Shown here: positions 24,627 through 64,000 of the stretch, piece after piece | How the letters are laid out: each line of letters begins with the position of its first letter | Position numbering within the stretch: position 1 is the first letter of the stretch | NCBI GenBank assembly: GCA_015179125.1 | Contig: WHVA01000213.1 | Span: forward strand, 62,001-126,000 | Reading direction: 5' to 3' | DNA: 64,000 bases | Source: Gautieria morchelliformis | Taxonomy: Eukaryota; Basidiomycota; Agaricomycetes; Gomphales; Gomphaceae | The notes under the pieces: model-generated | Seen by the model: only the letters and a program-made list of their open reading frames with translations | Databases searched by the model: none | Told to the model about the DNA's origin: nothing | Translations under genes and position numbers: made by a program

Positions 24627-27600
24627 CTACTGACTATTTTCTTGGCCTGGGAGTGGTCCCAAACCTATGATGGGGGCTTTCGTATCCCACACACGGATTG
24701 TGTTGTCAGTAGACCCGGAGACGATGCGTTTGCCGTCCGGCGAGAACGCCACCGATGTGACACTGTCGGTGTGGCCTTCGAATGGTGCTGAAATGACCTC
24801 CCCGGTGTCTGCATTCCACACACGGATCGTCTTGTCATTAGACCCGGAGACGATGCACTTGCCATCATGCGAAAACGCCACCGACCTGACGAGGCTGGTG
24901 TGGCCTTTGAATGGTGTTGAAATGACCATCCCAGTGTCTGCATTCCACACATGGATCATCTGGTCATCAGACCCGGAGACGATGCGCTTGCCATCCTGCG
25001 AAAACGCCACCGACCTGACGAGGCTGGTGTGGCCTTTGAATGGTGCTAAAATGTGCTCCTCGGTGTCTGCATTCCACACACGGATCGTCTTGTCAGCAGA
25101 CCCGGAGACGATGCGCTTGCCATCCTGCGAAAACGCCACAGACATGACGGGGCCGGTGTGGCCTTTGAATGGTGCTGAAATGACTTCCCCGGTGTCTGCA
25201 TTCCACACACGGATCGTCTTGTCAAAAGACCCGGAGACGATGCGCTTGCCGTCCTGGGAGAACGCCACCGACATGACCCAGTTGGTGTGGCCTCTGAATG
25301 GTGCTGAAATGACCTCCCCGGTGTCTGCATTCCACACACAGACCGTCTTGTCAAAAGACCCGGAGACGATGCGCTTGCCATCCTCCGAGAACGCCACCGA
25401 CATAACGGAGTCGGTGTGGCCTTCGAATGGTGCTGAAATGACCTCCCCGGTGTCTGCATTCCACAGACGGATCGTCTTGTCATCAGAACCGGAGACGATG
25501 CGCTTGCCATCCTGCGAAAACGCCACAGACATGACGGAGTTGGTGTGGCCTTCGAATGATGCTGAAACGACTTCCCCGGTGTCTGCATTCCACACACGGC
25601 TCGTCTTGTCAGCTGACCCGGAGACGATGTGCTTGCCATCCTGCGAAAACGCCACTGACACGACCGAGCTGGTGTGGCCTTTGAATGGTGTTGAAATGAC
25701 CTCCCCCGTGTCTGCATTCCACACACGGATCGTCTTGTCACGAGACCCGGAGACGATGCGCTTGCCGTCCTGCGAGAACGCCACCGACGTGACCCTATCA
25801 GCGTGGCCTTCAAATGGTGCTGAAATGACCTCCCCGGTGTCTGCATTCCACACACGGATCATCTTGTCATCAGACCCGGAGGCGATGTGCTTGCCGTCCT
25901 GCGAGAACGCCACCGACATGACAAAGCCGCTGTGGCCTTCAAATGGTGCTAAAATTACCGCCCCGGTGTCTGTATTCCACACACGGATCGTCTTGTCAGC
26001 AGACCCGGAGACGATGCGCTTGCCATCCTGCGAAAACGCCACCGACATGACGGAGTTGGTGTGGCCTTCGAATGGTGCTGAAATGACCTCCCCGGTGTCT
26101 GCATTCCACACACGGATCATCTTGTCAAAACACCCGGAGACGATGCGCTTGCCGTCATGCGAGAGCGCTACCGACGTGACGGGGCCTGTGTGGCCTGTCA
26201 GAACGGATTGAATTCGTAGCCACGTCGTCGCTTTCCCGGTCTCGGCGTGGAGTAGTCGTAGAAATCGTGAGAGGTAAGCCTCGCATAGTTTCGACGTTTC
26301 AGGTGCAAACGGGAGTGCCGACAAATAGAGATCGGGAGCACTCTGAGAGATTACATTCCCAAGCGCACGTACAAAATTGCTGGTATCCGTTAGGAATGCT
26401 GAAATGTCATTATCCTGAAGTTCATTAGGCTCACGTCGGAGCTCATAAAAACTCGGACACTCACCTGACTCCAGTCCATTATTGATGAGAGCGCTGCTGA
26501 TGCATCGGATACGTTCTTGATCAGATTCAAAACTTCTAGCCAGTAGAGTAGCTTAGTCTGGAGAAACTCCATGACCTTTGCTCCTATATCGGGCGTAAAG
26601 GTGGTGGCGTGAACGTGGTCCGCCCAAAACCGGCAAGAGTAGGAAAGCTGGGAGGATATATACTTATTGGTCCGTGTCGGCAAGTCGACAACGCCGTTGT
26701 TGCGCAGATGTGAAGTTTCAAGCTGATAGATGTTGAAACAAAATTCATCCTTCATCACGCGCAGGGACGAGAACGCAAGGCCGTCATGGTGTAAAGATGT
26801 AGCGACGTAGTATGGTCCACTCCGATCGCGATCTGTCAAGAAGTCACGAAAAGACGTGTGCAGCAGACGAATTGGGTCAGATGTTTTGGTGACATCGCTC
26901 AACAGAGATGCCATTGGACCAACTATCAGATCCACCGCATTTCCCGATCCATCTTCATCGTGCAACTTCTGGAGGGCAGATATGGACAGGGGCTCTTTGG
27001 CTGCCAGTATGCAGCCCATGACCGATCGGAATCGACGCACGATGCTATCATTATTCCCCGGCCCAAATAACTGCGTGAGTATCTTAAGATACAGCCCATC
27101 CAACAGGCTGAGGTGCGTGTTCTGCGATGACAAAAGGATATCAAGTTGCTCGGCAGGATCTAAACCCTTCAAGCCGTCTCCTTTGACAAATAGACAAGCA
27201 GTGGACGCCCATTGAAATAGACCTTCCGATTTCTCGACTAATAATCGACACCAAGCCTTGTTGGGCCACTTCTGCTCGAGGGCCGGAATGTTACCCAGTT
27301 GGGCTTGCACAAAGAGGGAAATGTCCTCCTCGGGGTTGGGGTCAATCTCCTTTATGGTCCTGGAAAGCACGTGCTTCTTCCCAAGGAGAGCGCCTTGGAT
27401 GTCTGTTTCGGCACGGGAAGTGATTAGAACACGGATATTGGACGGCAGTTCTGCAGCTCCGTTGCCAAGGACAGACAAAAGACCATGGCGAGATACCTCA
27501 TCTCCGCTTTCATCTAATGCATCAATGACGATCACCGTCGGTCCAACGGTGGTTAGGCCCTGGGCGGGATCTAGAATGAACCTCTCGAACTGCTCACTGG

Positions 27601-30283
27601 GCACGAATGTGGTCCGAAGTTCTCGATTCTCCCGAATCACGTTCAATAAAGAGGCTTTGCGTTCTGGATCCAGATCAGCTAGACCACAAGCAATTGTGCT
27701 AAAGGCATTGCTGGGGGAGCGTTCTGCCTGACGAGCGCGGTCAAAACAATATGACGATCCAAGACGTCTGAGCTTGTCAAATTGTTTAGCGACCTCGTGA
27801 GCAATTGCAGACTTGCCAGCACCCACAACATCGTTCAAGAAGAATATCTGGGGGGTGTCGTCGCTATCCTCCTGGTTGACCCACTCACATATCTCCGCGA
27901 TAACTTTCTCCCGAGTACCCCGCAGACACCCCCTATTAGGATCGAAACAAGCACCCTGTGCGTGGGGCATGTCATTAAGTGGAGCTTCCTCAGCTAGTTA
28001 CAAGGTGTATTAGCCTAGGGAAAGACCGCAAATAAGAAAACTCGCCGATTTCCTCGACAACATTCAGAACGCGTAGCACAGTGATTTCAGTGTGAATCAC
28101 GCCAAGTCCTTGTAACTCCAACTGGAGTTTGTTGAAAGATTCCAGGTATTGTTTGACCTTGCTGTCGACATCCAACACTAGATGTTTCGCGGTTCTTTTC
28201 CCTGAACAAAGATCATCAGCTATGGCCACGTGACAGTGGGTCCAACATACAGAAATCCTTGTTTTTTGCGTAGGCACGGACAAAGTAGCTGCATTTTAAC
28301 GTCTGCCTCTCCAATGCTAAGATAATTGACTTGTGCGATTCAATTTTCTTCAACGGCTCTGCCAGATGGACGAATGCATAGGTGTCTCCAATAATTCTTG
28401 CCAGGCCATGGATGCTATCGCCTCGGTCCATCTGAGCCATGATCGTCTAAATAGAGTCAACCCCAGATGTCAGCTATATCTATCCGATTGGTGTATGTCA
28501 TAGACGTACCTTGTGTGCAAGAGACAGGATAGACCATGCCATTTTTGCATATGGATGGACCTAGAATAAAACCAACCATGTCCATGAGCTGACCTGGGAG
28601 ACCCCCGGCGTTTGAAGTGATGCCTAAGTCCTCTGCTTGTCGAAGATAGAAATCTCCAAGAGAAGGCTCTAGACGATGATCACAGCGAGGTCAAGTTTGC
28701 ACAAGATGGACGACGTATGATAATTGAACTGGAGAATATACATGCGAATGTAAACTACTTATATCGAATGCTCGCAAGGTATTAGCGAATAGGAAAGAGG
28801 CCGTTGTGAGTCAGGGTCGGATAGGGGTGCGCAGTCATGATACTAAGTAGATGGAATAAACATACAATAGAGTGAGGGAAGAATGCGAACATGAAACAAC
28901 GGAGAATAAAGGTGGCAAAGGCACTTATGGACAAAACCATGTCTTGGGACCCGCATACATGCTACCCTGCACGGCCTCTTCGTTTCCTGGGTTGATCCCA
29001 CATGACCTATGGAAGGGATGTCCTACAAACACACTTTGGCCATACGAACACCCAATGGGGTTGGAGTAAGACGATGATGGGGTTAATGATGAACCATCAT
29101 GCTGGGTGAATGGTATCAATCATATTTGATGGCATGCCTGCTGGCGAAATGTGCGAGGAGCGAATAGCGGTTCGGAGAATGGGGCGAACAGCGGGTAGAG
29201 TGGACGTAGAGGGGGAGTGGTCGGTGGGTGCGGCGAACTCTGGTGAAGATGCTAGGGAATGAGGAGAGGGAACATAGAGACAGTGGGGTAAGAGAAATAG
29301 ACAGGTCATGACAGTATGCAGGGTTATTGAAGTGTCCTGCATTCCTTGACTGTGCCACAAAGGCCGGCGCTGCCTGACTCGATATCTCCACTGCACTCAC
29401 ATCCGCCTCATGTGCCTCACTATACCTCTGAGGCCTTATCCACGATCTCGGTAAACAGCCTGATATTTTTCAGGAGGGGAGCCCAAGTCGCCGATATTGC
29501 CATCAAAGTATCCATGGCGGAAGTGGCGGCATCGGCCCCAGCCCCTGCATCAACGATTAGGGACGGCGCCGGGTTCATATTATCCACCACTTTCGTTCCG
29601 CTGACTGCTTCGCTCAACTCGGCCGCCTGCGACTCGTCGGACGTTGCGAAAGACGAAATGGTGAACTCTAGGACAGTCGGAACCTCATGCATCTTCCCGT
29701 CCTTATCTGATTTTTGCAGTGTGCGAGGAACGGCTGCTGTGTTCGATGATTCGCGTGCATTCGGTCGATGAGCGAAAAGGACTGACCTCCAGTTCCTCCT
29801 TCTGCAAGCAGCAACTCAATCCGTTCCTTCGCACCGCCTATGTAGTCATCGCGTGTAAAGATATGGTGCCCGTAAACTTCGATTCCTAATATGGAAGACC
29901 CATGAAAGTTCCTGCTGGGCATGGATTTAAGTTGCGTGAAGATAATAACATTGAAATTAAACGCACAAATAGAAGGACTCATTCCACGAGGCAGTATTGC
30001 CTCTCGTAGCTACCGCAGTCTTCTTGACATCCTTATCGACAAAGAGTTTTACGTAGTAGTTACCAGCACGTTTGTAGAACAGTCCGACATTGGGAAGGTG
30101 ATCGCATTTCAGGTCTGTTGTGATCGGCAAGAGTCAGTATGCAATAGGCAGCGCAAACGAAAGAGTCTTTCCAGCAACTTTGATTCCTGCAGGAATACTT
30201 CGGGGTGGTGAGTGAACAGTTGGCTCACTAGAGAAGTGATTGTGGACTTACGGTGCTGTCACAGTGCCCTGAACGTTGTTCAT
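24627..30283 (-). CDS. STAND/NLR receptor: C2 domain, NACHT ATPase, WD40 repeats
   Basis: One multi-exon gene of about 1,400 residues. It starts at 30283 (MNNVQGTVTAP). A C2-like domain reads GLFYKRAGNYYVKLF, GNTASWNESF and GIEVYGHHIF; a linker follows with TWAPLLKNIRLFTEIVDKA joined to HPYAKMAWSILSLAHK, a block typical of Agaricomycete NWD proteins. The NACHT domain has Walker A VVGAGKSAIA, Walker B VIVIDALDES and sensor-like ITSRAE. Twelve 43-residue WD40 repeats end the protein. Such proteins act in fungal non-self recognition and programmed cell death; that role is inferred from the family. Oddities: a GC..AG intron at 27994-28045, an 865-nt intron at 28561-29425, and an in-frame TGA at 30134-30136 in the C2 region that I could not resolve with a normal intron and that may inactivate this allele. 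Confidence 0.85.
24670..26210 (-). repeat. Twelve tandem 129-bp WD40-coding repeats
   Basis: Each unit encodes GHT-xx-V-x-SVAFSQDGKRIVSGS-x-DKTIRVWNADTGEVISAPF with very little change outside a few sites. Variable sites are the two residues after GHT, the residue after the following Val, and the residue between GS and DK. Such near-identity at DNA level with selected variable positions is the pattern of repeats that undergo unequal exchange and diversifying selection. Confidence 0.9.
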
Positions 30284-51377: not shown

Positions 51378-52038
51378 AGCGAGTGGGTCATCTTCCTCTG
51401 GCAGTCCGTGACGCTGGTCTGGCAAAGCTGTCTACGTGGGAGGTGTGATGGTTTAACTCGAACATTATTTTGGACATTTTGGTACTCAAAAGTTGTTACA
51501 CTAAGGAGCACAGTTGCCTGGATATCTTGGAGATTTTGGGTATCCGATTCCTTTTGTCGACCGGTCCCCATCCTCGCCACGAACCCCTTTACATCACGCT
51601 CGTTTTTCGCGCACAGTTGCTCGAATTTCCGTCCGTGTTTGATGCTAAATCGACCTGCTGTAGTTTTACTTAGAGCTTATGTGGACACTCGTTTCATTGT
51701 TAAGCGGTTCAACTAGTGCGACTGGATTCTTTGCGTAGGTCCTTAGCTGTGCTGGCTACAGCCAGCATCCTGGTCCATACTGGATGCGAGAGTTCTCGCG
51801 GCTTTGGCAAAGTGCCAAACATGTTGCTTCTGCGGCCGGAAGTACTGAAAGCAAAGCTTCTATGGCGACATGGGGAGGCTCACAAAGACCCGGAGGAACT
51901 ACAGCATCAGTGAGTGAAGGCAAAGTGACTTGCTAGAATAGACACTGTCATGCGAGCCCGTATGACAAACAGGCCAAGGGGAATCACCGCTTTTTGGGAG
52001 TCTGAAAACAAACCCCGACCAGGTTAGGACAGCTGGGC
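51378..52038. other. No recognisable gene
   Basis: A short plus-strand ORF at 51716-51913 has no recognisable content. Nothing else is seen between the lipase gene and the copia fragment. Confidence 0.45.
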
Positions 52039-52266
52039 TTAGAGCAAACCAATCAGTTTTAGCAGTGATCTTAGCCATAGTGCCTCATTGATTCTATAGG
52101 TGCATGACATATATTTGGCTTCAACGCTTGAGGTTGCCACCGTTGGTTGCTTTTTCGAGCTCCATGAGATAGGTCCACCCTGGCGTGCAGTGCATTTAAT
52201 AATTTTAACCTTTCTCACACAAGTTTGATACCTGGTATATGATACCACAAGTAATAAGCCATACAT
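52039..52266 (-). pseudogene. Orphan copia RNase H fragment
   Basis: The frame reads PISWSSKKQPTVATSSVEAKYM and then EALWLRSLLKLIG, the highly conserved end of copia RNase H (the SWSSKKQ..SS.EAEY block). No RT or LTR lies next to it. It cannot be the missing end of the copia element at 3786, which is far away, and probably marks an independent decayed insertion. Confidence 0.8.
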
Positions 52267-52569
52267 CTTACACCTTTTTGAACTTCCAACGACTGTTTGC
52301 CTAGAAAACAGTTGAAGAGTGGTTCCTGCAGCGTCTTAGACAAGATCGCTGTGCTGACGATTGGAAAATCATCAGAAAATGAACATAGTACAACATACTA
52401 GGCGGATGCTCACAACTTTTTATTACCTGTAGCTTCACCCATTTTATTCTCAGATTATAGAAAAGAAGAGGACGAAAGTATATGCCAATCTTATTGTTGG
52501 GCTATAAATAAATTTTCTTTTGTCCCTCCCCGAGCGGCTGCTCCGCTGACGAGAACACCTCTTTTGATT

Positions 52570-52960
52570 TTTACCCCTCTTCTTATTTTTTCTACCCACT
52601 TTTAATATACACTATATCATTATAACTATTCATATATATTACAAATATCTAGACAACTACTATTACTCCATATGGTAGTCTAATACTCTCTCATTATAAC
52701 TAGTCATACTAATACTCCTACTCATATCTATTAGAAGTATCTATCCAACTATCTGTTATTCTATCTTGTAGTCAGATACTCTCTCATATGTATATATATC
52801 TCTGAGATGTTTAAACATATACAGAATATTCTAATAACATCTATTATTCTCCTTATAAATATTACTGTATATTCCTATATGTTGTTATAATACTCTTATA
52901 ATGTATATTATATACTCATATATGCTGTATTACATAACCATTATGATTATCCTCCCTACA
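52570..52960. repeat. AT-rich stretch with diverged tandem repeats
   Basis: About 390 bp of very AT-rich DNA. Imperfect units of roughly 100 bp share ATACTCTCTCAT and the surrounding ACTA/TATC phrases (near 52683 and 52767). It directly precedes the first gypsy gag. I could not show that it is an LTR. Confidence 0.6.
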
Positions 52961-52997
52961 ATCAACTGTGCGCCTGTGATGTACCCTCTCAGTCAAA

Positions 52998-55402
52998 TGA
53001 CACAATCTAGCAGTTCGCGCAACAAAACCCTGGTGCAGCCTAATGACACCACGGCTGACGCTACCTTGGGCTCAGGGCCCAAGGAAATAGAAGACGGTGA
53101 AGTCATAGATCTTGCTACACACATCCTTGCACCAGAGGACGGGGACAAGTCACGCTCCCCATCCCGCTCACGCCCCCCTCATGATAAGGGCAAGGGCCAA
53201 GTCAGATCACCCGTCAGCAATGACGAAGGCTCAGCATCGGACTGGATGTCGCGACAAGTTAAGAGCCACGACGCAGCCCCCCGGTCCAAAGATTGGACAA
53301 CTGTTGCTCCTCCCAAGGAACAACGTCAAAATCGACGAGCACCTGAGGACAATCAGGACTCAGAATACTCCAGCTCAAGTCGAAAGAGCTCAAGGACAAA
53401 CACCACTGATGAAACAACGGTGACTGTGCAGCTGAACAATCAGCTACACGAAGCAACCCAACCCATCGGCCACGCTGATGCGAGGAACGAGCAGATAGGC
53501 CGTGAGCTGGAGAAGGTGGCAGATGGGATTGCTGGCATAGTCACGATGACACACAGACTAGCCAGGTCACTTGCGGGCCTGCAAGCATCACTGGCTGAAT
53601 CCCGCACGGACGTGCGCCAGAGCAACACAGAAATTGCCGGCGCTACAAGCCCTTGAAGACAAGAACAAGCGTCGCCACCACCGAACATCCCATCCGTGCA
53701 GGACATATGGTTCAGGAATGAATCGAGAAACCGCGAGACCAACATGGCCCCAGAGAGGGATGGCAAAACCATCCAACAGGCAGTCTGTGAACAGGTGGCC
53801 TTGGAGGTCGACTCTGAGGACACGGCCACGAGCCTGGAACTCGAAGTCGAGCACTGGCAACGGAAAGAGGCGCAAGCTGCCTGTCGCTATATGCGTGCCC
53901 TGGAGCTGCGCAGGCAGCATGCCAAAGAGGTGGTGACTTGAGCGCAGACCACCCAGCTGCTGAACGAGCAGCAGGAGCGTGTCGTTCAGGAGGCCAGACA
54001 AGCATGTTCTGCTCTCTTGAGCAGACTATGAGTCCAGAATGTGGGATTGACAGGGGACACCTGACATCAATCCCCATGAAGCAGTGAGCAGTTAGAAACT
54101 GCCCCACCACGTGCTGCTGTACAGCCACGCGAAAGGTCTTTTGCCTTGACCTTCAGTCAAGGCATCCTGGACCAAATTGAAGGCCCACAGGAGCCATATG
54201 ACAGCGTCACATGGATGATCCGTGTAGCGCTTGCAGACGCTGCAGACACGGACCCTGAAAAGTCCGTGCTCGCGAAAGCTGGCATAAAGCTGGCACACCC
54301 CGAGCCATACGCCGGAGGTTCGGACCTCGAAGAATTCGAGGGGTTCGTAGCGGGCATCTTGAGGTGGCTCAAGATGAACTGCCTACTAGGGCCAACCACC
54401 ATGCAGATGCAGGTGGATTACCTGGGCACTCACCTAACCGGCAAAGCCCAAGAATGGTTTGTTCAAAACGTTGAGCGTTTCGATCGTCAGGTCCATGAAT
54501 GGACCTTGGAAATGGCTATGCAAGGGCTGCAGAAGAGATTCATGCACACCCTCACATATCACCACGCGTTGAACAAATTTGACACTGTCGTGCAAGGCAC
54601 GAAGACCATTCAGGAAATACTGAATGAGCTCACGAAGTACTTGGCCTGGATGATACAGCCGCCTGATGAATACACACCCCGTAGACGGTTCGTGTCAGCA
54701 TTGTGCGATACATTGCGCAATGAAGTCCTGAAGAAAGGCTACAATGCCAAATTCAGCTTGATCGAGCAGCTCTTTGAAGCTGCCTGAATGATTGAGGAGG
54801 CATCCCGGTACAACCAAGGCATGCGTCGGGCAGAAACCGCAGCCGCAATGGCCATCACGTCACAGCTTGTGACGAGCAAGCTAACTGCACAGTCAGGCTT
54901 TAAAAAGCCCACTGCATTCCAGGCAAACAATGCCTTCTGCCAACCCATGGCAACAAAGCCGCCACAAACAGGTTGTCCGCCTGAGGCGTTGGGAAACTCA
55001 GCAAAGCCGAGATACCCACAAAAGCCATCCGGCCGCCCTCCAGATAGGCCGCAAAATTCCCATAGCAGCGCAAGCTGCTTTGAATGCGGCCAGGCAGGCC
55101 ACATTAAGGCGAATTGCCTGCGCCTGAGGCCAAAAGTGCGGCCAGCGGCTGTACAGCAGGACGACGATGAGGGTCTGGAGGGTCCCATTGATACCTCTCT
55201 TCAAGAGGTCGAAGAGGGGGAGGGTGACCCTCAGGAAACTGCGGATCAAGAAGGAAATGGTGAGCCAGCAGAAGCCTGGGAGCCTGAACCATCCCAATAC
55301 TACGATTGGGATGAAGACATGGCAGACAACCAGACTGCCTACAGATCCAGCGCGATTAGAATCGCGCAGGTAGATGAGACAGCCAAAGTCATGGCTGCTT
55401 GA
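52998..55402 (+). pseudogene. Gypsy copy 1 gag with capsid domain and zinc knuckle
   Basis: The start is taken at MTQSSSSRNKTLVQP. One frame continues through an acidic/Ser-rich N-terminus, a coiled-coil region (LELEVEHWQRKEAQAA), a retrotransposon capsid domain (AHPEPYAGGSDLEEFEGF, LTGKAQEWFVQNVER) and a CCHC knuckle (CFECGQAGHIKANC) near 55077. It is broken by in-frame TGA codons at 53654, 53939, 54029, 54062, 54077, 54785 and 55400, with no TAA or TAG and no frame change over 2.4 kb. The frame continues beyond a further TGA at 55463 into protease. Gag would build the particle and bind RNA. Confidence 0.85.
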
Positions 55403-55944
55403 ACGACGGCCCGAGATAAGGCGGCCAAACCGATGTATCATCATCGGACCAAACACCGCACATGACTGGTAGGGCTGTGCTGCGAAAACTGTACCCTGTC
55501 AGGGTACTGGGAAATTGGTGGCACAAAGGCCCACTGTCTACTAGACAGTGGGAGTGAAGGGGTACTGCTATCCCCCCAATTCAATCGTGCCACTGGCATT
55601 AAGACATTTGCCTTGGAACAGCCAATTGCCCTGCAATTGGTGTGCATCGGTAGTCGATCAATGATCAACTACGGGACAAACACGACCATTAGATTTGGTC
55701 GCGAAACAGTCGAAGAATACTTCAATGTGGTGAATGTCAAGTACTACGACATTATTTGGGGACTCCATGCCTAAGGAAACTAGGGGTGACCCTGGACTTT
55801 GCCAGTCCAGGGACAATCCATGTGGGGAATGAAACCATCCCTACAGGAAAAGTAAGCTTCGACAACGAAAAGTCGTCAAAGAATGGCATGGGCCCAAAGG
55901 TGAGTAGAATCACCTCGGGGCTCATACCCCCCCTGGCCAATTGA
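55403..55944 (+). pseudogene. Gypsy copy 1 aspartic protease region
   Basis: In the gag frame, after TGA at 55463, comes the retropepsin active site in CLLDSGSEGVLLSPQF, followed by INYGTNTTIRFG and EYFNVVNVKYYDII. At about 55757 a one-base shift moves the reading to GTPCLRKLGVTLDFASPG, the normal continuation of gypsy protease toward RT. Shortly after (IPTGKVSF) homology ends. The protease would cleave Gag-Pol; this copy is inactive. Confidence 0.8.
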
Positions 55945-55950
55945 AGCCAG

Positions 55951-56003
55951 GAGGATGAGTCTCGCAACTCATCCTCACCCTCTCCCTACACCCGTAGGGA
56001 GAG
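55951..56003. repeat. Two adjacent perfect 10-bp hairpins at the RT deletion point
   Basis: Hairpin 1 pairs 55951-55960 with 55967-55976 (loop of 6). Hairpin 2 pairs 55980-55989 with 55994-56003 (loop of 4). They sit exactly where the reverse transcriptase should start. Confidence 0.9.
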
Positions 56004-56053
56004 ACGCTGTCATCTCACGATGAAGGCACTAGAAAAAAGGAAAAAGCCGCCGA

Positions 56054-58362
56054 GTGCCGGGGGTCCAAACAGACGAGGTGGACCTCTACTCCATCCGAAT
56101 GGAGTGTCTCGGCCATATGATCGATGGCCGAGGGGTACATGCCGACGAGGACAAGATGCAACGCATCCGGGAGTGGCGCAGGCCACGGACGTTCAACGAC
56201 GTCCAGCGTTTCCTCGGGCTGGTACAGTATCTGGCACACTACATGCCGGATGTTAGCGCATATACCACCCCACTATCGGGCTGTGCGCGTAATAACCGTC
56301 CATTCGAATGGACACCACTACTCGACAAATGCTGGCAAAGCATTAAGGCATTGGCCTGTAAGGCCCCGATCCTGCGTCCAGTAGACGCAAGGTGCCCAGA
56401 GCCGATCTGGGTGATCACCGACGGATCAAAAGCCGGCATCAGTGCGGTCTACGGCCAAGGTCCTGACTGGAAAACTTGTCAACCAGCCGGCTTCTTGTCA
56501 AATAAGTTCAGCGTTGCTCAACAACACTACCGGACTCACGAGCATGAGACGATCGCGGTGCTCGAGGCTCTCATGAAATGGGAGGACAAATTGCTGGGGC
56601 GAAGGTTCACCCTCATCACAGACCACAAAGGGCTCGAGTACTTCAAGACCCAGAAGAGCCTATCTGACCAACAGGTCAGATGGTGGGAGTTTCTATCCCG
56701 GTTCAATTTCAACACCGTTCATGTTGACGGTGTAGAGAACAAGGTAGCGGACTGCCTGTCGCGCTACTACGAGAGCGACACGAGTGATGACAATCACCCG
56801 GACCATGTCTTCGTGAACGTGGATGCGCGTTTGGACCCGGATGGCGAGTTATTGCCCACCGACCGGTATGTCGAGTTGCGAACAGCAGTGACAAGACGCT
56901 CTAAATGCCTCGCTGAGAAGACAGAGGCGAGAGTAACGGAAGCCGCCGCATTAAACGAGGGCTCGCCAGAGCCTGCAAACGTCGCCGCGTCCCGCGATGA
57001 CGATGATGACGTCAGAGCCATCGCCGCAGGAAATGACGGCGCGCCCCTACGCCGGGTCGTTGAGCAAGGCGTAGACCTGTCGAAGGTCCTACGAGACATG
57101 TACCACAGGGACACCATGTTCACAAAGATCATGGTGCACCCGGACGCGCACCCGAGATTCGGGATCCAGGACGGGCTGATCTGGACTAAGAATCAGCTCA
57201 AAAGAGATGTCATTGCCATCCCCTGCTCTGTTCTTCAAGGGGCAAGGAAGCTGATCGAAATTATCATCGATTGGGCACATCAGATAGTTGGCCACTATGG
57301 CGATCTGAAGACTTCGAACTACGTTCGAAGAGCATATTGGTGGCCGGGCATGAGCCCAGACATAGAAGCGTTCTGCACATCGTGCGCAAGGTGTCAGATG
57401 ACGAAAACCGGGCCACAACGGCCCAAAGGCCTACAACACAGCCTACCCATTCCAGATAGGCCATGGCAGTCGATTGGCATCGACTTCATGGGGCCCCTGC
57501 CCAAATCCAACAACTGTGACTACCTGATGGTAGTCATCTACCGACTAACGTCGCTCATACACCTCGTACCAACCACGACGAGCGTGTCAGCCAAGGGAGT
57601 AGCCTGGCTGTTTCTGAAGGAGGTCATTCGACTCCACGGAGTTCCCGACTCCATCGTCTCGGACAGAGACTCGAAGTTCACGTCGATCTTCTGGCGTGAA
57701 CTACAAGGACTCATGGGGACTAAGCTCCTCACGTCAACTGCCTTCCATCCCCAAATGGATGGAGCCACCGAGTGGGCAAACCGCTCGATCGGCCAGATAT
57801 TGCGCGCGGTCGTCAGAGACGATCAGAAGGATTGGGCATTGAAATGCCCAATGGTAGAGGTCACCCTCAACCCCAACGTCAGCGCGACCACAGGGTTCAC
57901 ACCTTTCGAGCTGAACCGCGGCTATATGCCGCGGATAGACCTCCCCATAGCCGTGGACACCCGTTCAAGGGGGTAGCCCGGTTCGCACATCAGGCAAAAT
58001 GGAACCTGATGGCTGCACACGATGCAATCATAGAGCATCGAGTGACGCAAACGTTTCATGCAAACAAGAAACGTAGGGCGAGCGACAGGTACGCGGCCAA
58101 CGACCGCGTCTACCTTTCGACACAACACCTAACTCTCCCGAAAGGAAGAGCCAGAAAGCTAGTCCCGTGGTACATTGGACCGTACCGCGTTGTCGAGGCT
58201 CACAACGACGCCTCGACGGTGACCCTCGATCTTCCCGACGAACTGAAAAGCCGTCGTATTTCACCGGTCTTCCATTCCAGCCTCGTACGGCGATACGAGG
58301 CTAACAACGATGAATTGTTCCCTTGTCGTGAGGCCAAGTCATTTTATGACTTCGGAGCAAAT
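56054..58362 (+). pseudogene. Gypsy copy 1 RNase H and integrase
   Basis: The frame starts in the RT thumb/connection (LYSIRMECLGHMIDGRGVH, FLGLVQYLAHYMPDV). RNase H follows with WVITDGSKAGISAVYG, HETIAVLEALMKWED and LITDHKGLEYF. The integrase has an HHCC zinc site (HQIVGHYGDLKT, CTSCARCQ) and the DDE core: Asp in GIDFMGPLP, Asp in VSDRDSKFTS and Glu in GATEWANRS. A one-base loss near 57962 shifts the frame; the GPY/F-like module YIGPYRVVEAHNDAS and SPVFHSSLVRRY continue in the new frame to the hAT insertion at 58363. The polymerase palm with YxDD is missing altogether. Confidence 0.85.
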
Positions 58363-59125
58363 CAGGGCTGTCCACGAGTCCAGGTTCCTGCAGGTGACTC
58401 GCAGTTCAACCTGCGATTTTAACCTGCAGATCCAACTCCCACAAGTCCAGGTGACCCGGCGCCTAAAAACCTGCCAAGTCCAGGTTTGGCCTTTGGAATT
58501 CCGCAGGTGACTTGCAGACCTGCAAGCCTTAAATGCCAAGAATTCATGTCATTCAACTACTATTACCTCCTTCTGGAGTAGAGAAGTCAGTCATCTCAGG
58601 TATCTGCGAGTATGCCGGTTCCTCCACAATGGATTACAGGGTTGACTTCCTTGACTACTAGACAATTGAATAGAGACCTGAAGCACCGAAAAAAAAACAC
58701 GAACCGGTAGAGAACTTGCAGCTCTCAGGTGATCTGCGAGTATGCCCGTTCCTCCACACTGATGTGGCGGCATTGCTGCCCACTGATTGACCTATGTAGG
58801 GCCATCAGTTGTGCAGACTTGTGAGTCCAAACAGACCATGTGACTCACTGTCTGTTCATATGATCTGCACCTGGCCAGGGACCTGGGCCATGTCTTTCCA
58901 TGGAGGAGGGCCGTCCCCATGGGAGGAGACACATCATGCACTCGCATGGGGTGAGTCAGCTTGGAATAATCCGGCAAGTCACCGCAAGTCACCCGCAGGT
59001 TTAACCTGCGGGTCCAAGTCAACCTGCAGAAAAACTCAGGTCAAGTCCAGGTTCCACTTCTGGAAGCTGGCAAACCTGCGAGTCCAAGTCCAGGTAACCT
59101 GCAGGTTGACTCGTGGACAGCCCTA
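58363..59125. mobile_element. Non-autonomous hAT-like element with 8-bp target duplication
   Basis: 763 bp inserted in the gypsy pol frame. It starts CAGGGCTGTCCACGAGTC and ends with the inverse of TAGGGCTGTCCACGAGTC. It is flanked on both sides by GAGCAAAT (58355-58362 and 59126-59133). An 8-bp duplication and CAGGG-type ends are hallmarks of hAT transposons. Inside are many short direct and inverted copies of AAGTCCAGGT and CCTGCAGGT, as expected of subterminal transposase-binding motifs, plus a 30-bp internal repeat (about 58599 and 58731). There is no transposase ORF. Removing the insert plus one duplication restores the reading frame that gypsy copy 2 has uninterrupted. Confidence 0.9.
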
Positions 59126-59332
59126 GAGCAAATGACGACGAGGAGTGGCTCGTCGACGAGATTATCGCACATTGATGGATAAACTCGACGGACCTGGAGC
59201 TCCAGGTCCGTTGGACCCTAGGCGACGTGACATGGGAACCCATGTCATCCTGCAAGGACCTTGAAGCCCTAGATAGCTCTCTAGAGCTTCAGGGGGTGGG
59301 CAAGCCATGCGTCCTCCCCAGACGCCGCTAGA
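59126..59332 (+). pseudogene. Gypsy copy 1 C-terminal chromodomain
   Basis: After the hAT insertion the pol frame continues DDEEWLVDEIIAH, a TGA at 59173-59175, then WINSTDLELQVRWTLGDVTW and CKDLEALDSS. This has the chromodomain pattern (VDEI..HR..LE..V.W..TWEP) found at the end of integrase in chromoviruses, where it guides integration to modified histones. Copy 2 has CGA at the position of the TGA. Confidence 0.75.
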
Positions 59333-59451
59333 CGCGTCCGTCACGTGCAGACCACATGACGCGCCGGCCACGGCGCGGTTAAATTTTCGCCTCGGATCTT
59401 TCCGAGGGTGCATCGCTTCTTGGAAGCAACCACCATCATCTACCCACGAAG

Positions 59452-60555
59452 ATGATGCCCCCCAAAGATGGGATGGACGTTGATCCGTCAATGTCCACAA
59501 CGCGAACAACGGCCCCGAGGCAGGGGGCCGCAGACATTCTACGTGCTCCAATAGACCAGGAGCACTGGATGATCGTGGGATGGGAGGACGCCCTCGCCAT
59601 CGTCCACCCAGACGATTGCGCAACATGCGCAGACTACGCCGCGCACCTTAGGGCCGCGACCGGCGCCAAAGAAACGCCACAGCTCACGCGTACATGCGAG
59701 ATGATCGGCGTATTTAAACGCATCGAGCGCGAACAATGCACTCGCAATCCCAAAAGGGATTGTCTCCTGATAGCGGGTGGTACCCTGCACGATATCGCGG
59801 CCATCCTAAAGGGTTGAATACACAACCCTGAAGGAATCCCATCAGCCATCCGTGACAATGCGGATGGCACCTTCAACCTAGACGACATGGACGTCTGGAT
59901 GTGGTTGAAGGCCCTTGCGCCCCGGGTCAAAGGGGTTGCATCACCTCTCAGGGCGAGGCTACTCAACCTATTCGGCTCGACAGACCAATGGTCGAGCCTC
60001 GTTGACGCCAGGGAAGTGCTGACGCCTCAGAGCACCACCCTGCGGCTCTCCATCATGGGCCCATTCCCCATGGGGGGCCGAGCCAGCCCCAACATCCCCC
60101 TCGCCGAGATCACGAGATGGTTGGCCCGCTATGTGGGGGTCACTCGTGAGCGAGTGGCATGCATTGAACACTATGTTCAATGCAGCATCACTGGCGCAGC
60201 ATTCAGTGCTGCCACTCGCGAGGGCCAACAAAAGGTCCTCGAGACCAGCCATGTGAGGACTGCAGTGCCATGACCCCTCACTCACGCTCAGCTCGACCAA
60301 GAGCTGGCGCGCTTCTGGCCCCCTCCTCAGACTGAGGACCTGGCCGTTGAGGCCATGCTCCGCGAGGACGCTGGCCTCATCACCCAAGCGGATACCGCCG
60401 CTAGTGGTGAGGCCGACCAGCCTCACCCAATCACCACCGATGACGCGGAGGTGCCCCCAGAGGAGTCACGTGCTCCACCGGCCCCGTACGACAATGACGT
60501 CATCGTATTGGCCACTCTAGAGGGCTCCATTATGGATGACCTCTATGAGTTGTAG
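59452..60555 (+). pseudogene. Extra ORF downstream of gypsy pol, copy 1
   Basis: The start MMPPKDGMDVDPSMS opens one frame of about 367 codons ending MDDLYEL at TAG 60553-60555. It is broken only by two TGA codons, at 59815-59817 and 60271-60273. Near the N-terminus is H-x3-C-x2-C-x5-H (in AIVHPDDCATCADYAAH), kept in copy 2 (AIIHSDKCKCCESYATH). The middle is helical (LDDMDVWMWLKALAPRV; AEITRWLARYVGVTRERVA) and the C-terminus acidic and proline-rich. There is no signal peptide or membrane helix, so it is not an envelope protein. Similar N-terminal starts (KDGMDVDPS and MDGIKEVIDIEPS) show a common origin. I do not recognise the family; it lies where accessory genes occur in some LTR elements. 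Confidence 0.65.
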
Positions 60556-60588
60556 TTAACCCCTATAGTTGTATATAGAGGGGGAGGG

Positions 60589-60790
60589 TGTAAATAACCC
60601 GTGTATCTACATGTACATTAGTTATTACATAATCCCAGTGGGCCCCTTAGGGACCCACTGTATAGTTTATGCGTGGGAACCGGCTAGCGGTCCCCATTGC
60701 ATCTTACCCTTACACTGTCACTATGTAGCATCAGAATACCACACCTTGGTCAAGTTCTGTCGTGCTCTTGTAACTTAAGGCTTAAGATAG
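60589..60790 (+). repeat. Probable 3' LTR of gypsy copy 1
   Basis: Directly after the polypurine tract the sequence begins TGTAAATAACCCG, and a CA end lies at 60789-60790, where gypsy copy 2 sequence begins. It contains a 14-nt palindromic phrase around GTGGGCCCCTTAGGGACCCAC. Without a 5' partner the right border is tentative. Confidence 0.55.
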
Positions 60791-60802
60791 ACATCTTTAC
60801 AA

Positions 60803-62880
60803 AAATGCAACACATCCGTGAGTGGAGGTGGCCTCACACGTTTAACGATGTGCAGAGAGTCCTCGCCCTCGTCCAATACCTGGCACACTACATGCCAGAT
60901 GTCAGCGCATACACCACTCCCTTATCAGGATGTGTGCACAACAACTGTCCATTTGAATGGACGCTGTTGCTGGACAAATGCTTCCACAGCATAAGGGCGC
61001 TGGCCTGCAAGGCCCCGATCCTGCACCCCATTGATGCATGGAACGCGGACCCGATATGGGTCATCACTGACGGTTCAAAGTCTGGTGTCAGTGCCGTCTA
61101 CGGCCAGGGACCAGACTGGAGGACCTGTCGACCAGCTGGCTCCTTGTCAAAGAAGTTCAGTGTTGCACAGCAACACTACAGAACACACAAGCATGAAACC
61201 ATTGCCGTGCTTGAAGCCCTCATGAAATGGGAGGACAAACTCCTAGGGAAAAAGTTCACCCTAGTCACAGACCACAAGAGTCTCGAGTACTTCGAGACCC
61301 AAAAGAACCTGTCTGGTAGACAGGTCCGGTGGTGGGTGTTCCTATCCTGCTTCAATTACAACACCATCCACGTTGATGGCATTGAGAACAAAGTAGTGGA
61401 ATGCTTATCCTGCTACTATGAGAGCGATATGGGTGACGAGAAGCACCTGGATCATGTCTTTGCCAACGCAGATGCACGACTAGACCCGGACGGTGAGCTA
61501 ATGTCCACCGACCGATACATGGAGCTGCGTACAGCAGCTACAAGGCGATCAACTCGCCTCACAGAGAAAACAGAGCTGCGAATATTAGAAGCAGCGGCTA
61601 TGAATGAAGGCTCTGTCAAGGAGCCTTGCCACGACACGTCATTGCCAGACAACGACAACGACAACGACATCCACGTCATTGCCGCAAGCAATGACGGAGC
61701 TTCCCTATGCGTAAGCATAGAAGAAAACTTGGACCTGCCAAAGGTCCTACATGACTCCTGCCATAAGGAGCCCATGTTTGTGAAGATCATGGTGAACACG
61801 GATGCACACCCAAGATTCGGCATCTGGGATGGGCTGATTTGGATGAAGAATCAGCTCAAGAGGGATGTCATAGCCATCCCTTGGAACGTGTTTCAAGGGG
61901 GAAGGAGGCTGATCGAGATCATAATCGATCACACCCACCAGACAATTGGCCACTACGGTCAACTGAAAACTTCGAACTACATTCGAAGAACATACTGGTG
62001 GCCCAGTATGGCCTCGGACATCGAGGCATTCTGCACTTCATGCACAAAGTGTCAGACTACCAAGACAGGCACGCAGCGGCCTGCAGGGCTACTACATAGC
62101 CTGCCCATACCCGATAGACCATGGCAATCTATTGGGATCAACTTCATGGGCCCATTGCCAAAGTCGAATGGCTGTGATTACCTCATGGTAATCATAGATA
62201 GACTCAGGTCTCACGTACACCTTGTCCCGACAACAACGAGTGTGACAGCCAAAGAAATAGCCTGGCTATTCCTGAAGGAGGTCATAAGACTTCATGGAGT
62301 CCCAGACTCCATAGTCTTGGATCGAGACTCGAAGTTCATGTCCATATTATGGAGTGAGCTCTGACGACTCATGGGGACGAAACTCCTCATGTCCACCGCG
62401 CTCCATCCTCAAACGGATGGTGTGGTGGAACGGGAAAACCATTCAATGGGCCAGGTCATTCTATCAGTCGTCAACAACGACCAAAAGGACTGGGCCAACA
62501 AGTGCCCAATGGTCGAAGTTGCATTAAACAGCAATGTCAGCTCGATGACAGGGTTTGCACCCTTCGAGCTGAACCACGGATATATGCCGTGGATTGACCT
62601 ACCAATGGCCACGGACACTCCCTTTAAGGGAGTGATGAAATTCACACATCAGGCTCAATGGAACCTGATGGCAGCACATGATGCCATCATAGAGCACCGC
62701 GTGACACAGACGTTTCACGCTAATAAGAAACATCACGAAGTGGCCATGTATGTGGTGGGAAACCGCGTCTACCTGTCAACACAAAACCTGACCCTGCCAA
62801 AAGGGAGGGCCAGGAAGCTAATACCGCGATATATAGGACCATATCGTGTGAAGGAGGCCCACAATGACACCTCAATGTGA
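60803..62880 (+). pseudogene. Gypsy copy 2 RNase H and integrase
   Basis: The frame reads VLALVQYLAHYMPDVSAY, then RNase H (WVITDGSKSGVSAVYG, LVTDHKSLEYF) and integrase (HQTIGHYGQLKT, CTSCTKCQ, GINFMGPLPK, VLDRDSKFMS, GVVERENHSMG). The first catalytic Asp of the DDE triad is Asn here (GINFMG against GIDFMG in copy 1). In-frame TGA codons at 62362-62364 and 62878-62880 interrupt a frame that otherwise persists to the GPY/F-like module (YIGPYRVKEAHNDTS). Confidence 0.85.
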
Positions 62881-63092
62881 ACCATCACACCGATGTTTCA
62901 TACCAACCTCATATGAATGTATGTGGCGAACAATGAGGATCTATTCCCTCGTCGAGAAGCAAAGTCATTTTATGACTTTGGGGAGAATGAAGAGGAAGAG
63001 TGGCTCGTTGACGAGATCTTATCCCATCGATGGATAAACTCGAAGGACCTAGAGTTCCAAATCAGGTGGATTCTAGGAGCCACGGCGCTATA
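62881..63092 (+). pseudogene. Gypsy copy 2 pol end with shortened chromodomain
   Basis: Continues with PMFHTNLI, then REAKSFYDFGENEEEEWLVD and EILSHRWINSKDLEFQIRW, which is uninterrupted at the site where copy 1 has the hAT insertion. The frame ends at TAA after GATAL; compared with copy 1 about 150 bp are missing between the second half of the chromodomain and the extra ORF. Confidence 0.7.
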
Positions 63093-63157
63093 AATTTTCA
63101 CCTCGGATCTCTCCGAGGGTGCTTCACTTCTTAAGAAGCAACCACCACCATCATCTA

Positions 63158-63910
63158 ATGAAGATGGATGGCATCAAAGAAGTCATAGACATTGAGCCAT
63201 CAACATCCACGCCACGGCCATTGGTCCCAAAGAAGGGGGCCACCACGATATTCTCGAAAAAGCTAGCTCCCGAAAACTGGGAGGTAGTGTCGTGGAATGA
63301 CAGGCTCGCCATTATCCATTCGGATAAGTGCAAATGTTGCGAGTCATACGCAACCCACTTAGCGGAGTCGTCAAACTCCAGTAAGATACAGATCGTAGAT
63401 GAGGACATCGGCTATGCCGTTGAGGACACCTGGCCCTGGATCACCAAAGGGGCCAGGTGGATGGCAGTTGAGGACACTCAAGCAGAGATTGAGCGCCTCA
63501 AGCAGGACCTGATCTCCGAGCGTGAGTGAGTCTCACACCAGGACGACACAATCCACGAGTTGAAACAACAACTCGAAGGAGCCAGGCCGATGTGCCCCAC
63601 CCTGCCGCAGCCAAAGGGTCAGCCTGTGGCCGGTCCATCCTCCCACCCGATGGCTCCATTGCCATCGCGTGAAAAAGGGGCAACACTAGCCCCAGGGGCC
63701 ACACCCCTCTCATCAGGCCCGGCTCTGGCCAACCGCATCACGGAGCCCAGCAAGGCACCCATTGTGGACGCCCGCGTGGCATCCAGGACAGCGACAGTCA
63801 CGACACTGTTGACTGTGATGGTGCCGTTTGAGTTGTATGACGCCAACATCCCGGACAGGTGGCTGTCCGACACGTCAATCTGGGACAATTATGACCCAGA
63901 TCGGCCTTAA
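63158..63910 (+). pseudogene. Extra ORF downstream of gypsy pol, copy 2
   Basis: The start MKMDGIKEVIDIEPSTST opens a frame with a single TGA at 63527-63529, ending DNYDPDRP at 63908-63910. The H-x3-C-x2-C-x5-H motif is at 63311-63352. A coiled-coil stretch (QAEIERLKQDLISERE, then DDTIHELKQQLEGARP) surrounds the TGA. The second half is Pro/Ala-rich and differs from copy 1. Unknown family; no membrane segment. Confidence 0.6.
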
Positions 63911-64000
63911 CATGTTTCCAAATGGAAACACAGAAAATATCTCCCCCCGTCAGTCATGGAAAACGGACTGGCAGATGAACTAGAATGTGTCAAGGACGTG

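What the first reader, a model, noticed from the sequence alone, without database searches (positions are those of the whole stretch)
52998..63910. Gypsy copies are saturated with short perfect hairpins, some with compensatory changes between copies
Seen directly: perfect stems recur every few tens of bases through gag, pol and the extra ORF. Examples (left arm/right arm): 53064-53071/53077-53084; 54142-54150/54156-54164; 54355-54363/54368-54376; 55350-55357/55360-55367; 55530-55540/55542-55552; 55790-55798/55804-55812; 56108-56116/56124-56132; 56662-56669/56674-56681; 57831-57840/57843-57852; 57916-57922/57928-57934; an 18-bp palindrome 59191-59208; 59228-59236/59239-59247; 59845-59852/59861-59868; 59974-59981/59991-59998; 60160-60170/60174-60184. 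An 8-bp stem with a loop up to 10 should arise by chance only about once in 6 kb. Copy 2 keeps several stems while both arms change: the C-G pair 57520/57533 is T-A at 62178/62191; G-C 56717/56728 is A-T at 61366/61377; G-C 56540/56563 is A-T at 61189/61212; C-G 57050/57071 is T-A at 61708/61717. I did not notice such density in the LINE, the copia element or the host genes. Possible causes: selection on RNA structure, or template switching during reverse transcription that turns near-palindromes into perfect ones.
Basis: partly seen in the sequence, partly recalled or inferred. Interest (0 to 1): 0.9.

Follow-up and report, generated by a model that had tools for sequence, protein, structure and literature searches.

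The report
Retrotransposon built of tiny perfect hairpins
A fungal jumping gene carries far more short self-complementary hairpins than chance allows, written mostly into its silent codon choices, so its RNA should fold tightly along its whole length; the likeliest cause is selection for a folded RNA, with some copying errors at hairpins as well.

Summary
All 15 listed stems are perfect. Region 52998-63910 holds 78 perfect inverted repeats (stem >=7, loop <=12) against 7.0 in dinucleotide shuffles; the window before 52000 is at chance. Codon-preserving shuffles give 9.0 against 62. All 60 family loci fetched share it; samples of three other Gypsy families of this genome do not. Folding energy exceeds shuffled controls by 22.6-25.9%, near the highest vertebrate RNA virus value I found in print (23.4%, PMC7642675). 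Stems survive the split of two subfamilies better than a divergence-matched expectation. With CpG masked, five of six A-to-B double changes keep pairing, none of eight in slid controls. Two hairpin loops are inverted in some copies, so template switching happens here, but I saw no arm homogenisation. Best reading: genome-scale ordered RNA structure in a Ty3/Gypsy element, kept by selection. Function is inferred; the selected strand is unsettled.

The parts
52240..56073 (+). B-type 5' part of a Ty3/Gypsy element (5' UTR, gag and following region), hairpin-rich
   Evidence: blastn to the B copy L070: 52240-52400 at 93%, 52956-53684 at 80%, 53674-54627 and 55400-56070 at 88.5-88.7%; capsid match in ORF 54080-54787
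56076..60801 (+). A-type fragment nested in the B element: RNase H, integrase, SH3, extra 3' ORF, A-type LTR-like repeat
   Evidence: 94.5% to A copy L069 over 56076-58362, 93.5% over 59125-59646, 90.6% over 59665-60801; Pfam RT_RNaseH, Integrase_H2C2, rve (below cut-off), SH3_Tf2-1
60589..60801 (+). A-type LTR-like repeat, with a hairpin at 60636-60660 whose B counterpart is in the L070 LTR
   Evidence: 88.9% to the LTR-like repeat behind the 3' LTR of L070; hairpin sequences; the name LTR is inferred
60802..63996 (+). B-type 3' part (copy 2): RNase H, integrase, SH3, extra ORF
   Evidence: 88.4% to L070 over 60802-63079 and 87% over 63078-63996; Pfam
56033..57976 (+). A pol ORF (647 aa): 13 stems >=7 vs 1.5 codon-shuffled
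   Evidence: codon-shuffle total-energy z -6.7 sense, -5.2 antisense
60688..62364 (+). B pol ORF (558 aa): 14 stems >=7 vs 1.5 codon-shuffled
   Evidence: codon-shuffle z -9.8 sense, -7.5 antisense
54080..55402 (+). gag-region ORFs 54080-54787 and 54788-55402, hairpin-rich
   Evidence: 6 and 3 stems >=7 vs 0.6 and 0.9; codon-shuffle z -5.4 and -4.9 sense
59383..60273 (+). extra 3' ORF fragments 59383-59817 and 59818-60273, hairpin-rich
   Evidence: 5 and 3 stems >=7 vs 0.66 and 0.62; listed homologues of the L069 version only in Gautieria
57517..57536 (+). hairpin with the clean A/B compensatory pair 57520/57533 (C-G to T-A)
57468..57485 (+). hairpin with non-CpG compensatory pair 57469/57484 (G-C to A-T)
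57769..57787 (+). hairpin with non-CpG compensatory pair 57772/57784 (G-C to A-T)
57854..57871 (+). hairpin with non-CpG compensatory pair 57859/57866 (G-C to A-T); three other pairs of this stem are broken in B
58166..58189 (+). hairpin with non-CpG compensatory pair 58170/58185 (G-C to A-T)
59188..59211 (+). longest perfect stem: a 24-base palindrome (12 bp, loop 0)
61674..61696 (+). hairpin whose loop core is inverted in 4 B copies
   Evidence: 61684-61686: one orientation in 21 copies, the other in 4, of 30
61159..61177 (+). hairpin whose loop is inverted in 1 B copy
   Evidence: 61167-61169: 17 copies vs 1, of 30

Best explanation
The stretch is a pair of nested Ty3/Gypsy LTR retrotransposons (subfamilies A and B, 74.5% identical in the aligned pol part) of a basidiomycete-like fungal genome. 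The element RNA, coding parts and the one LTR examined alike, is predicted to fold into a dense, irregularly spaced series of short local hairpins. [quoted passage not shown] Shown: the excess, its encoding in synonymous codons, its presence across the fetched family copies, its absence from samples of three other Gypsy families of the same genome, better-than-expected survival of stems across the A/B split, and fewer stems in more diverged A copies. Inferred: the property is kept by selection on the active element's RNA. The likely benefit is a compact, self-paired genomic RNA that packs into particles and resists annealing to antisense RNA (hence RNA interference) or degradation. Template switching at hairpins happens at least occasionally and may help to make new stems.
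For: Density and controls. MFED (350-base windows, sense) 25.9% for A copy L069, 25.3% for B copy L070, 22.6% for the window element, 0.4% for 34 windows of the rest. Codon-preserving shuffles: five of five element ORFs at total-energy z -4.5 to -9.8 sense; a WD40 gene, an NPHP3_N gene and a copia ORF at -0.5 to -1.4 sense. Stem codons are not less conserved as protein. A stems in B: 5 of 18 intact vs 0.5 expected, 13 of 18 with at most one broken pair vs 3.0, 27 broken pairs vs 49.3; B stems in A: 25 broken vs 37.1 (P 0.003). Non-CpG third positions, internal branches, changes per column stem/non-stem: A 0.058/0.143, B 0.165/0.390; terminal branches 0.244/0.285 and 0.485/0.546. Neutral simulation of the stem-picking bias gives all-site internal ratios of 1.12 (lowest of 30: 0.60) for A and 0.82 (lowest 0.51) for B; observed 0.57 and 0.45. 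Five of six A-to-B double changes keep pairing vs 0 of 8 in slid controls. Stem number falls with copy divergence (21 A copies, rho -0.53, p 0.014). Loop-size excess peaks at 3-6 bases. Sense structure exceeds antisense in 3 of 3 element MFED sets.
Against: Strand evidence is weak. Antisense folds nearly as well (MFED 17.3-21.6%), and the sense-antisense z difference is +0.01 (s.e. 0.15) for L070, -0.31 (0.21) for L069 and -0.47 (0.17) for the window. Two control ORFs also reach z about -2.7 on the antisense strand under codon shuffling (NPHP3_N, copia). Near-perfect stems of young A copies carry A.C and A.A mismatches (6-7 each) rather than G.U (0-1 at >=8 pairs, 2-3 at >=7). There is no excess of stable GNRA loops over their reverse complement (7 vs 5 of 88). 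Stems defined in one subfamily show no significant constraint in the other's tree. Third-position A/B divergence in stems relative to non-stems is 0.59-0.83 depending on the stem set, and a neutral two-lineage simulation gave 0.83 (s.d. 0.19), so that measure alone does not decide. Doubles in the B-to-A direction are not in excess (2 vs 1.6). The tree tests and one search use about 2.2 kb of pol, and no DNA of relatives in other species could be reached.
Confidence: 0.58

Rival explanations
1. Template switching: during reverse transcription (or host replication) the nascent strand folds back at imperfect inverted repeats, so arms become perfect and loops sometimes invert. Hairpins pile up by mutation alone, filtered by selection on the proteins.
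For: Loop-core inversion at two B hairpins with 8-bp arms (61167-61169 in 1 copy; 61684-61686 in 4 copies); in 435 B pairs no reverse or complement control had arms >=4 bp. Structure is nearly strand-symmetric. The LTR of L070 also holds hairpins, four of 8-10 bp in 207 bases. The four A mismatches with the same state in both subfamilies all pair codon positions 1 or 2, as a protein filter would leave them. PMC8794818 (passages read) proposes this mechanism for RNA hairpins.
Against: 0 WC-to-WC doubles among 146 in-family stem-pair changes after CpG masking. 0 of 90 clusters of rare changes match a nearby inverted stretch (control also 0, and inversions in place are not seen by it). Samples of three other Gypsy families in the same genome lack the excess, so the effect would have to belong to this element's own enzyme. 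The only A candidate inversion is ambiguous, and the A-B comparison gave no case with arms >=6 bp.
Confidence: 0.22
2. Structure is selected on both strands: local pairing in sense and antisense transcripts (or in single-stranded cDNA) keeps the two strands from annealing and so hides the element from RNA interference.
For: A.C and G.U breaks are about equally frequent (CpG-masked A/B single changes, both directions added, so shared pairs count twice: G.U 14, A.C 10, other 8). Antisense MFED is 17-22%. Perfect Watson-Crick stems serve both strands.
Against: Sense exceeds antisense in 3 of 3 MFED sets and in 4 of 5 ORFs under codon shuffling. No data on antisense transcripts or small RNAs in this host.
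Confidence: 0.13
3. Composition or codon-usage artefact, assembly error or chance.
For: Most 2-kb bins of the region are somewhat G+C-richer than most of the window.
Against: Dinucleotide and codon-preserving shuffles; seen in 60 of 60 family loci fetched, 9-43 stems >=7 per locus of about 3.2-4.2 kb; not in samples of other Gypsy families.
Confidence: 0.01

Closest known systems
[quoted passage not shown]
   Same: Sequence-order-dependent folding energy raised along the whole genome, carried by many consecutive local stem-loops in coding sequence, not tied to gene borders (PMC7642675, abstract and passages)
   Different: Here it is an LTR retrotransposon of a fungus; MFED 22.6-25.9% against 15% for SARS-CoV-2, 7-9% for HCV and 23.4% for the highest vertebrate RNA virus named in that paper (same window size, another shuffling program); many stems are short and perfectly Watson-Crick; 13 of 18 A stems have at most one broken pair in B, whereas that paper reports poor positional conservation between sarbecoviruses
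Yeast Ty3 genomic RNA (SHAPE-MaP)
   Same: Same retrotransposon superfamily; structured regions within pol (PMC11381356, outline, abstract and one section read)
   Different: Described there as mosaic, with structured regions up to 30% of Ty1 and Ty3 RNA; no whole-genome hairpin saturation in the parts I read
Template-switch origin of RNA hairpins (Monttinen and Loytynoja)
   Same: Perfect stems, compensatory pairs and inverted loops (PMC8794818, passages)
   Different: That work concerns RNA genes and DNA replication; here a protein-coding retroelement, with two loop inversions and no arm homogenisation detected
Tf2-1-like / basidiomycete Ty3/Gypsy elements
   Same: Capsid, zinc knuckle, protease, RT, RNase H, integrase and Tf2-1-like SH3 matches; best two relatives 65-66% identical over 98% of the query
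   Different: Extra 3' ORF of unknown function and hairpin saturation; the sampled other Gypsy families here lack the latter

Membership tests
Ty3/Gypsy LTR retrotransposon | RT - RNase H - integrase order with gag capsid and protease | tested here: met
   Pfam matches in window and L069; spread over several broken ORFs
Ty3/Gypsy LTR retrotransposon | LTRs beginning TG and ending CA | tested here: met
   L070 LTRs 207 bp, 94% identical, TG...CA; one element examined
GORS | Folding energy above sequence-order-shuffled controls along the whole genome | tested here: met
   79 of 79 windows of 350 bases in the element stretches have positive sense MFED (lowest 9.1%)
GORS | Structure dispersed through coding sequence, not only in UTRs | tested here: met
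GORS | Paired sites less variable than unpaired sites | tested here: met
   internal-branch and A/B matched tests; but cross-family-defined stems not significant and not decisive
GORS | RNA folds so in cells | not testable with these tools
   needs chemical probing
GORS | Shielding from innate RNA recognition | not testable with these tools
   reported for virus transcripts in PMC3950689 (abstract and outline)
Template-switch hairpins | Inverted loops between equal arms | tested here: met
   2 B hairpins with 8-bp arms, controls with such arms 0 in B; 1 ambiguous case in A; none with arms >=6 bp between A and B
Template-switch hairpins | Parallel changes that make one arm the exact complement of the other | tested here: not met
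   0 of 90 clusters, control also 0; 0 in-family WC-to-WC doubles of 146 pair changes after CpG masking

The most novel reading that the evidence does not exclude
An LTR retrotransposon whose own reverse transcription keeps writing hairpins into it: fold-back template switching makes and flips stems, protein and RNA selection keep the useful ones, and the element ends up with one of the most self-paired coding genomes known, possibly as a shield against RNA interference.
Probability: 0.25. Interest if true: 0.87.

Novelty: new variant of a known kind. Interest (0 to 1): 0.74.

Why it matters
Whole-genome RNA structure has been studied in RNA viruses; I found no report of it in a retrotransposon (searches; open-access papers, listings capped). 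Here the replicating history and the fossil copies lie side by side in one genome, so selection before insertion can be set against neutral decay after it. Hairpin-poor Gypsy families in the same nucleus are natural controls. That makes the open question of what pervasive RNA structure is for (packaging, shielding from RNA silencing, or a by-product of copying) testable in one organism.

Tried and rejected
Within-family 'compensatory' doubles looked strong at first but sit at CpG sites: a CpG in one arm faces a CpG in the other, so independent decay imitates covariation; masked, they vanish. One search used only 13 of 29 A and 17 of 29 B loci (one strand) and was replaced. Tree tests dropped rows with 60% coverage or less: 30 of 30 A and 24 of 30 B rows kept. 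The joint A/B trees were wrongly rooted (A not monophyletic); their branch counts are not used. In one search I first judged there were no loop inversions of note; some searches showed that was wrong. Many reverse-complement matches look like CpG decay (CG to CA or TG) and were filtered by asking for two transversions. Codon-phase test: no clear preference. The extra ORF gave no Pfam match and too poor an alignment for folding, so no structure was predicted. Rfam at E <= 0.5 over 52000-64000: no match. Relatives' DNA: none in two scans of viral contigs; 3 plasmid records, 27-33% identical. A host-gene search named only Piloderma croceum as a species among the 120 proteins listed and did not fix the host.
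Full report
WHAT IS THERE. The region is not two simple tandem copies. Comparison with two 9.8-9.9 kb stretches of the same genome (L069, A-type; L070, B-type) shows B-type sequence from about 52240 to 56073, an A-type fragment 56076-60801 ending in an A-type LTR-like repeat (60589-60801), and B-type sequence again from 60802 to the window end: an A element fragment nested in a B element. L070 has 207-bp LTRs, 94% identical, TG...CA, about 8.2 kb apart. Domains are those of a Tf2-1-like Ty3/Gypsy element, plus an extra 3' ORF without Pfam match whose only listed homologues are three proteins of Gautieria morchelliformis. The genome (122 Mb, 1113 contigs) is therefore probably from that fungus or a relative; this is inference.

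THE HAIRPINS ARE REAL. 15 of 15 listed stems are perfect. Counts against dinucleotide shuffles are 78 vs 7.0 (>=7 bp), 38 vs 1.9 (>=8) and 17 vs 0.5 (>=9); the 13 four-kb bins before 52000 are at chance. Against codon-preserving shuffles of 11 ORFs: 62 vs 9.0, maximum 21 of 200. The excess by loop size peaks at 3-6 bases and fades beyond about 20-30. Spacing is irregular (coefficient of variation 0.8-1.0), and hairpins of >=6 bp cover 25-28% of the element stretches against 5% of window 1-52000. Folding energy against dinucleotide shuffles (350-base windows), sense / antisense: 25.9 / 20.2% (L069, 24 windows), 25.3 / 21.6% (L070, 24), 22.6 / 17.3% (window element, 31), 0.4 / -0.3% (34 windows of the rest). 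Under codon-preserving shuffles five of five element ORFs are structured (sense total-energy z -4.5 to -9.8); three control ORFs are not on the sense strand (-0.5 to -1.4), though two of them reach about -2.7 antisense. In SARS-CoV-2 the same measure is 15%, and 23.4% was the highest vertebrate virus value in that paper (PMC7642675; abstract and passages); shuffling programs differ, so the comparison is approximate.

FAMILY-WIDE AND SPECIFIC. 30 A loci and 30 B loci (each set including the window's own copy) carry 9-43 stems >=7 per locus of about 3.2-4.2 kb. Eight further Gypsy loci turned out to be one family (92-97% identical); with L071 and L072 (1.8 kb each) three other families were sampled. 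Their mean folding z is -0.31 to +0.20 sense. Stem counts >=7 are 0-1 in seven of the eight loci and 5 in L008 (shuffle 2.7), 1 in L071 (1.3) and 4 in L072 (1.5). In 21 well-covered A copies stem number falls with divergence from the other copies (rho -0.53, p 0.014). So the hairpins belong to the active element and decay after insertion. In one search I used the first 16 of 30 rows per family.

SELECTION OR MUTATION. Stem codons are no less conserved as protein than other codons. A stems (18 fully aligned) compared with B: 5 intact vs 0.5 expected, 13 with at most one broken pair vs 3.0, 27 broken pairs vs 49.3, WC-to-WC doubles 6 vs 2.1 (P 0.028). For 13 B stems: 2 intact vs 0.3, 6 vs 2.0, 25 broken vs 37.1 (P 0.003), doubles 2 vs 1.6 (not in excess). 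The expectation comes from non-stem columns matched by codon position, base and CpG state. With CpG masked, A-to-B doubles are 6, 5 of them WC-WC (G-C/A-T swaps in either order), against 0 of 8 in six slid controls; B-to-A 3 with 1 WC-WC, against 0 of 9. Over the aligned 5.3 kb of L069 and L070: 2 of 4 and 4 of 7 doubles are WC-WC, against 1 of 24 and 0 of 38 in slid controls. Non-CpG third positions change less in stems than elsewhere on internal branches (A 5 changes in 86 columns vs 63 in 442; B 17 in 103 vs 164 in 421) but little less on terminal branches (21 vs 126; 50 vs 230). Neutral simulations of the picking bias do not reach the all-site ratios 0.57 (A) and 0.45 (B) in 30 runs each. 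Against this, stems defined in one subfamily show no significant constraint in the other's tree, and plain third-position A/B divergence ratios (0.59-0.83) do not clearly leave a neutral two-lineage simulation (0.83, s.d. 0.19).

THE CpG TRAP. Within-family double changes at first seemed to show covariation. They fall at CpG sites, where both arms are hot spots by geometry. After masking there is none within families, among 146 stem-pair changes.

STRAND. Sense beats antisense in MFED in all three element sets, yet antisense is high too; the z difference is -0.47 (s.e. 0.17) for the window, -0.31 (0.21) for L069 and +0.01 (0.15) for L070. Loops and unpaired bases are A-rich on the sense strand, as they are, less so, in a control element. 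Mismatches in near-perfect stems of four young A copies are A.C and A.A, with G.U at 0-1 (>=8 pairs) or 2-3 (>=7). CpG-masked A/B singles are G.U 14, A.C 10, other 8, both directions added. GNRA loops are not favoured over their reverse complement (7 vs 5 of 88). I therefore leave open whether the sense RNA alone is the target.

TEMPLATE SWITCHING. Two B hairpins with 8-bp arms have inverted loop cores: 61167-61169 in 1 copy (17 copies in the other orientation) and 61684-61686 in 4 copies (21 in the other). In B, reverse and complement controls gave 0 and 1 events, none with arms >=4 bp. In A the one case (ATA/TAT) is both reverse complement and complement, so ambiguous. Across A-B pairs, 12 reverse-complement, 2 reverse and 7 complement matches occur, none with arms >=6 bp. 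So template switching touches these hairpins, as PMC8794818 (passages) would predict. But 0 of 90 clusters of rare changes look copied from a nearby inverted stretch (the control was also 0, so the test has little power). Of 9 mismatches inside near-perfect A stems, 4 have the same commonest state in B, 3 another non-Watson-Crick state, 2 are paired in B; all 4 unchanged ones join codon positions 1 or 2. I read this as occasional template switching under a regime kept by selection; a larger role is not excluded.

LIMITS. The tree-based tests and one search use about 2.2 kb of pol. Function (packing, shielding, stability) is inference. The Ty3 SHAPE paper (PMC11381356; outline, abstract and one section read) describes mosaic, not saturated, structure. 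Statements that this is not in print rest on the searches in an open-access library.

Noticed in passing
56073-56076 and 60801-60802: A-type element fragment nested in a B-type element; in L069 an A element is followed within some 20 bases by B-type sequence, and L070's 3' LTR is followed directly by an A-type LTR-like repeat, so the two subfamilies may often insert next to or into each other (three places seen).
   Followed up: partly
59383-60273; L069 1956-2990 (-): Extra 3' ORF with no Pfam match; the only 3 proteins listed as homologues are from Gautieria morchelliformis; 117 matches scored in the genome (a lower bound), many in open frames of 500-700 codons and up to 929.
   Followed up: partly
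A and B copies, pol region: Strong CpG decay: in A stems terminal-branch changes fall from 0.55 per column to 0.16 when CpG columns are masked, which points to methylation-driven deamination in this fungus.
   Followed up: partly
L070 126-332 and 8346-8552 (reverse-complement coordinates): A 207-bp LTR holding four perfect hairpins of 8-10 bp; one of them has a counterpart in the A LTR-like repeat (60636-60660) with a different inner stem.
   Followed up: partly
24627-27997 (-): NPHP3_N NTPase followed by WD40 repeats: looks like a fungal NLR-like (NWD-type) gene (the NLR label is recalled).
   Followed up: no
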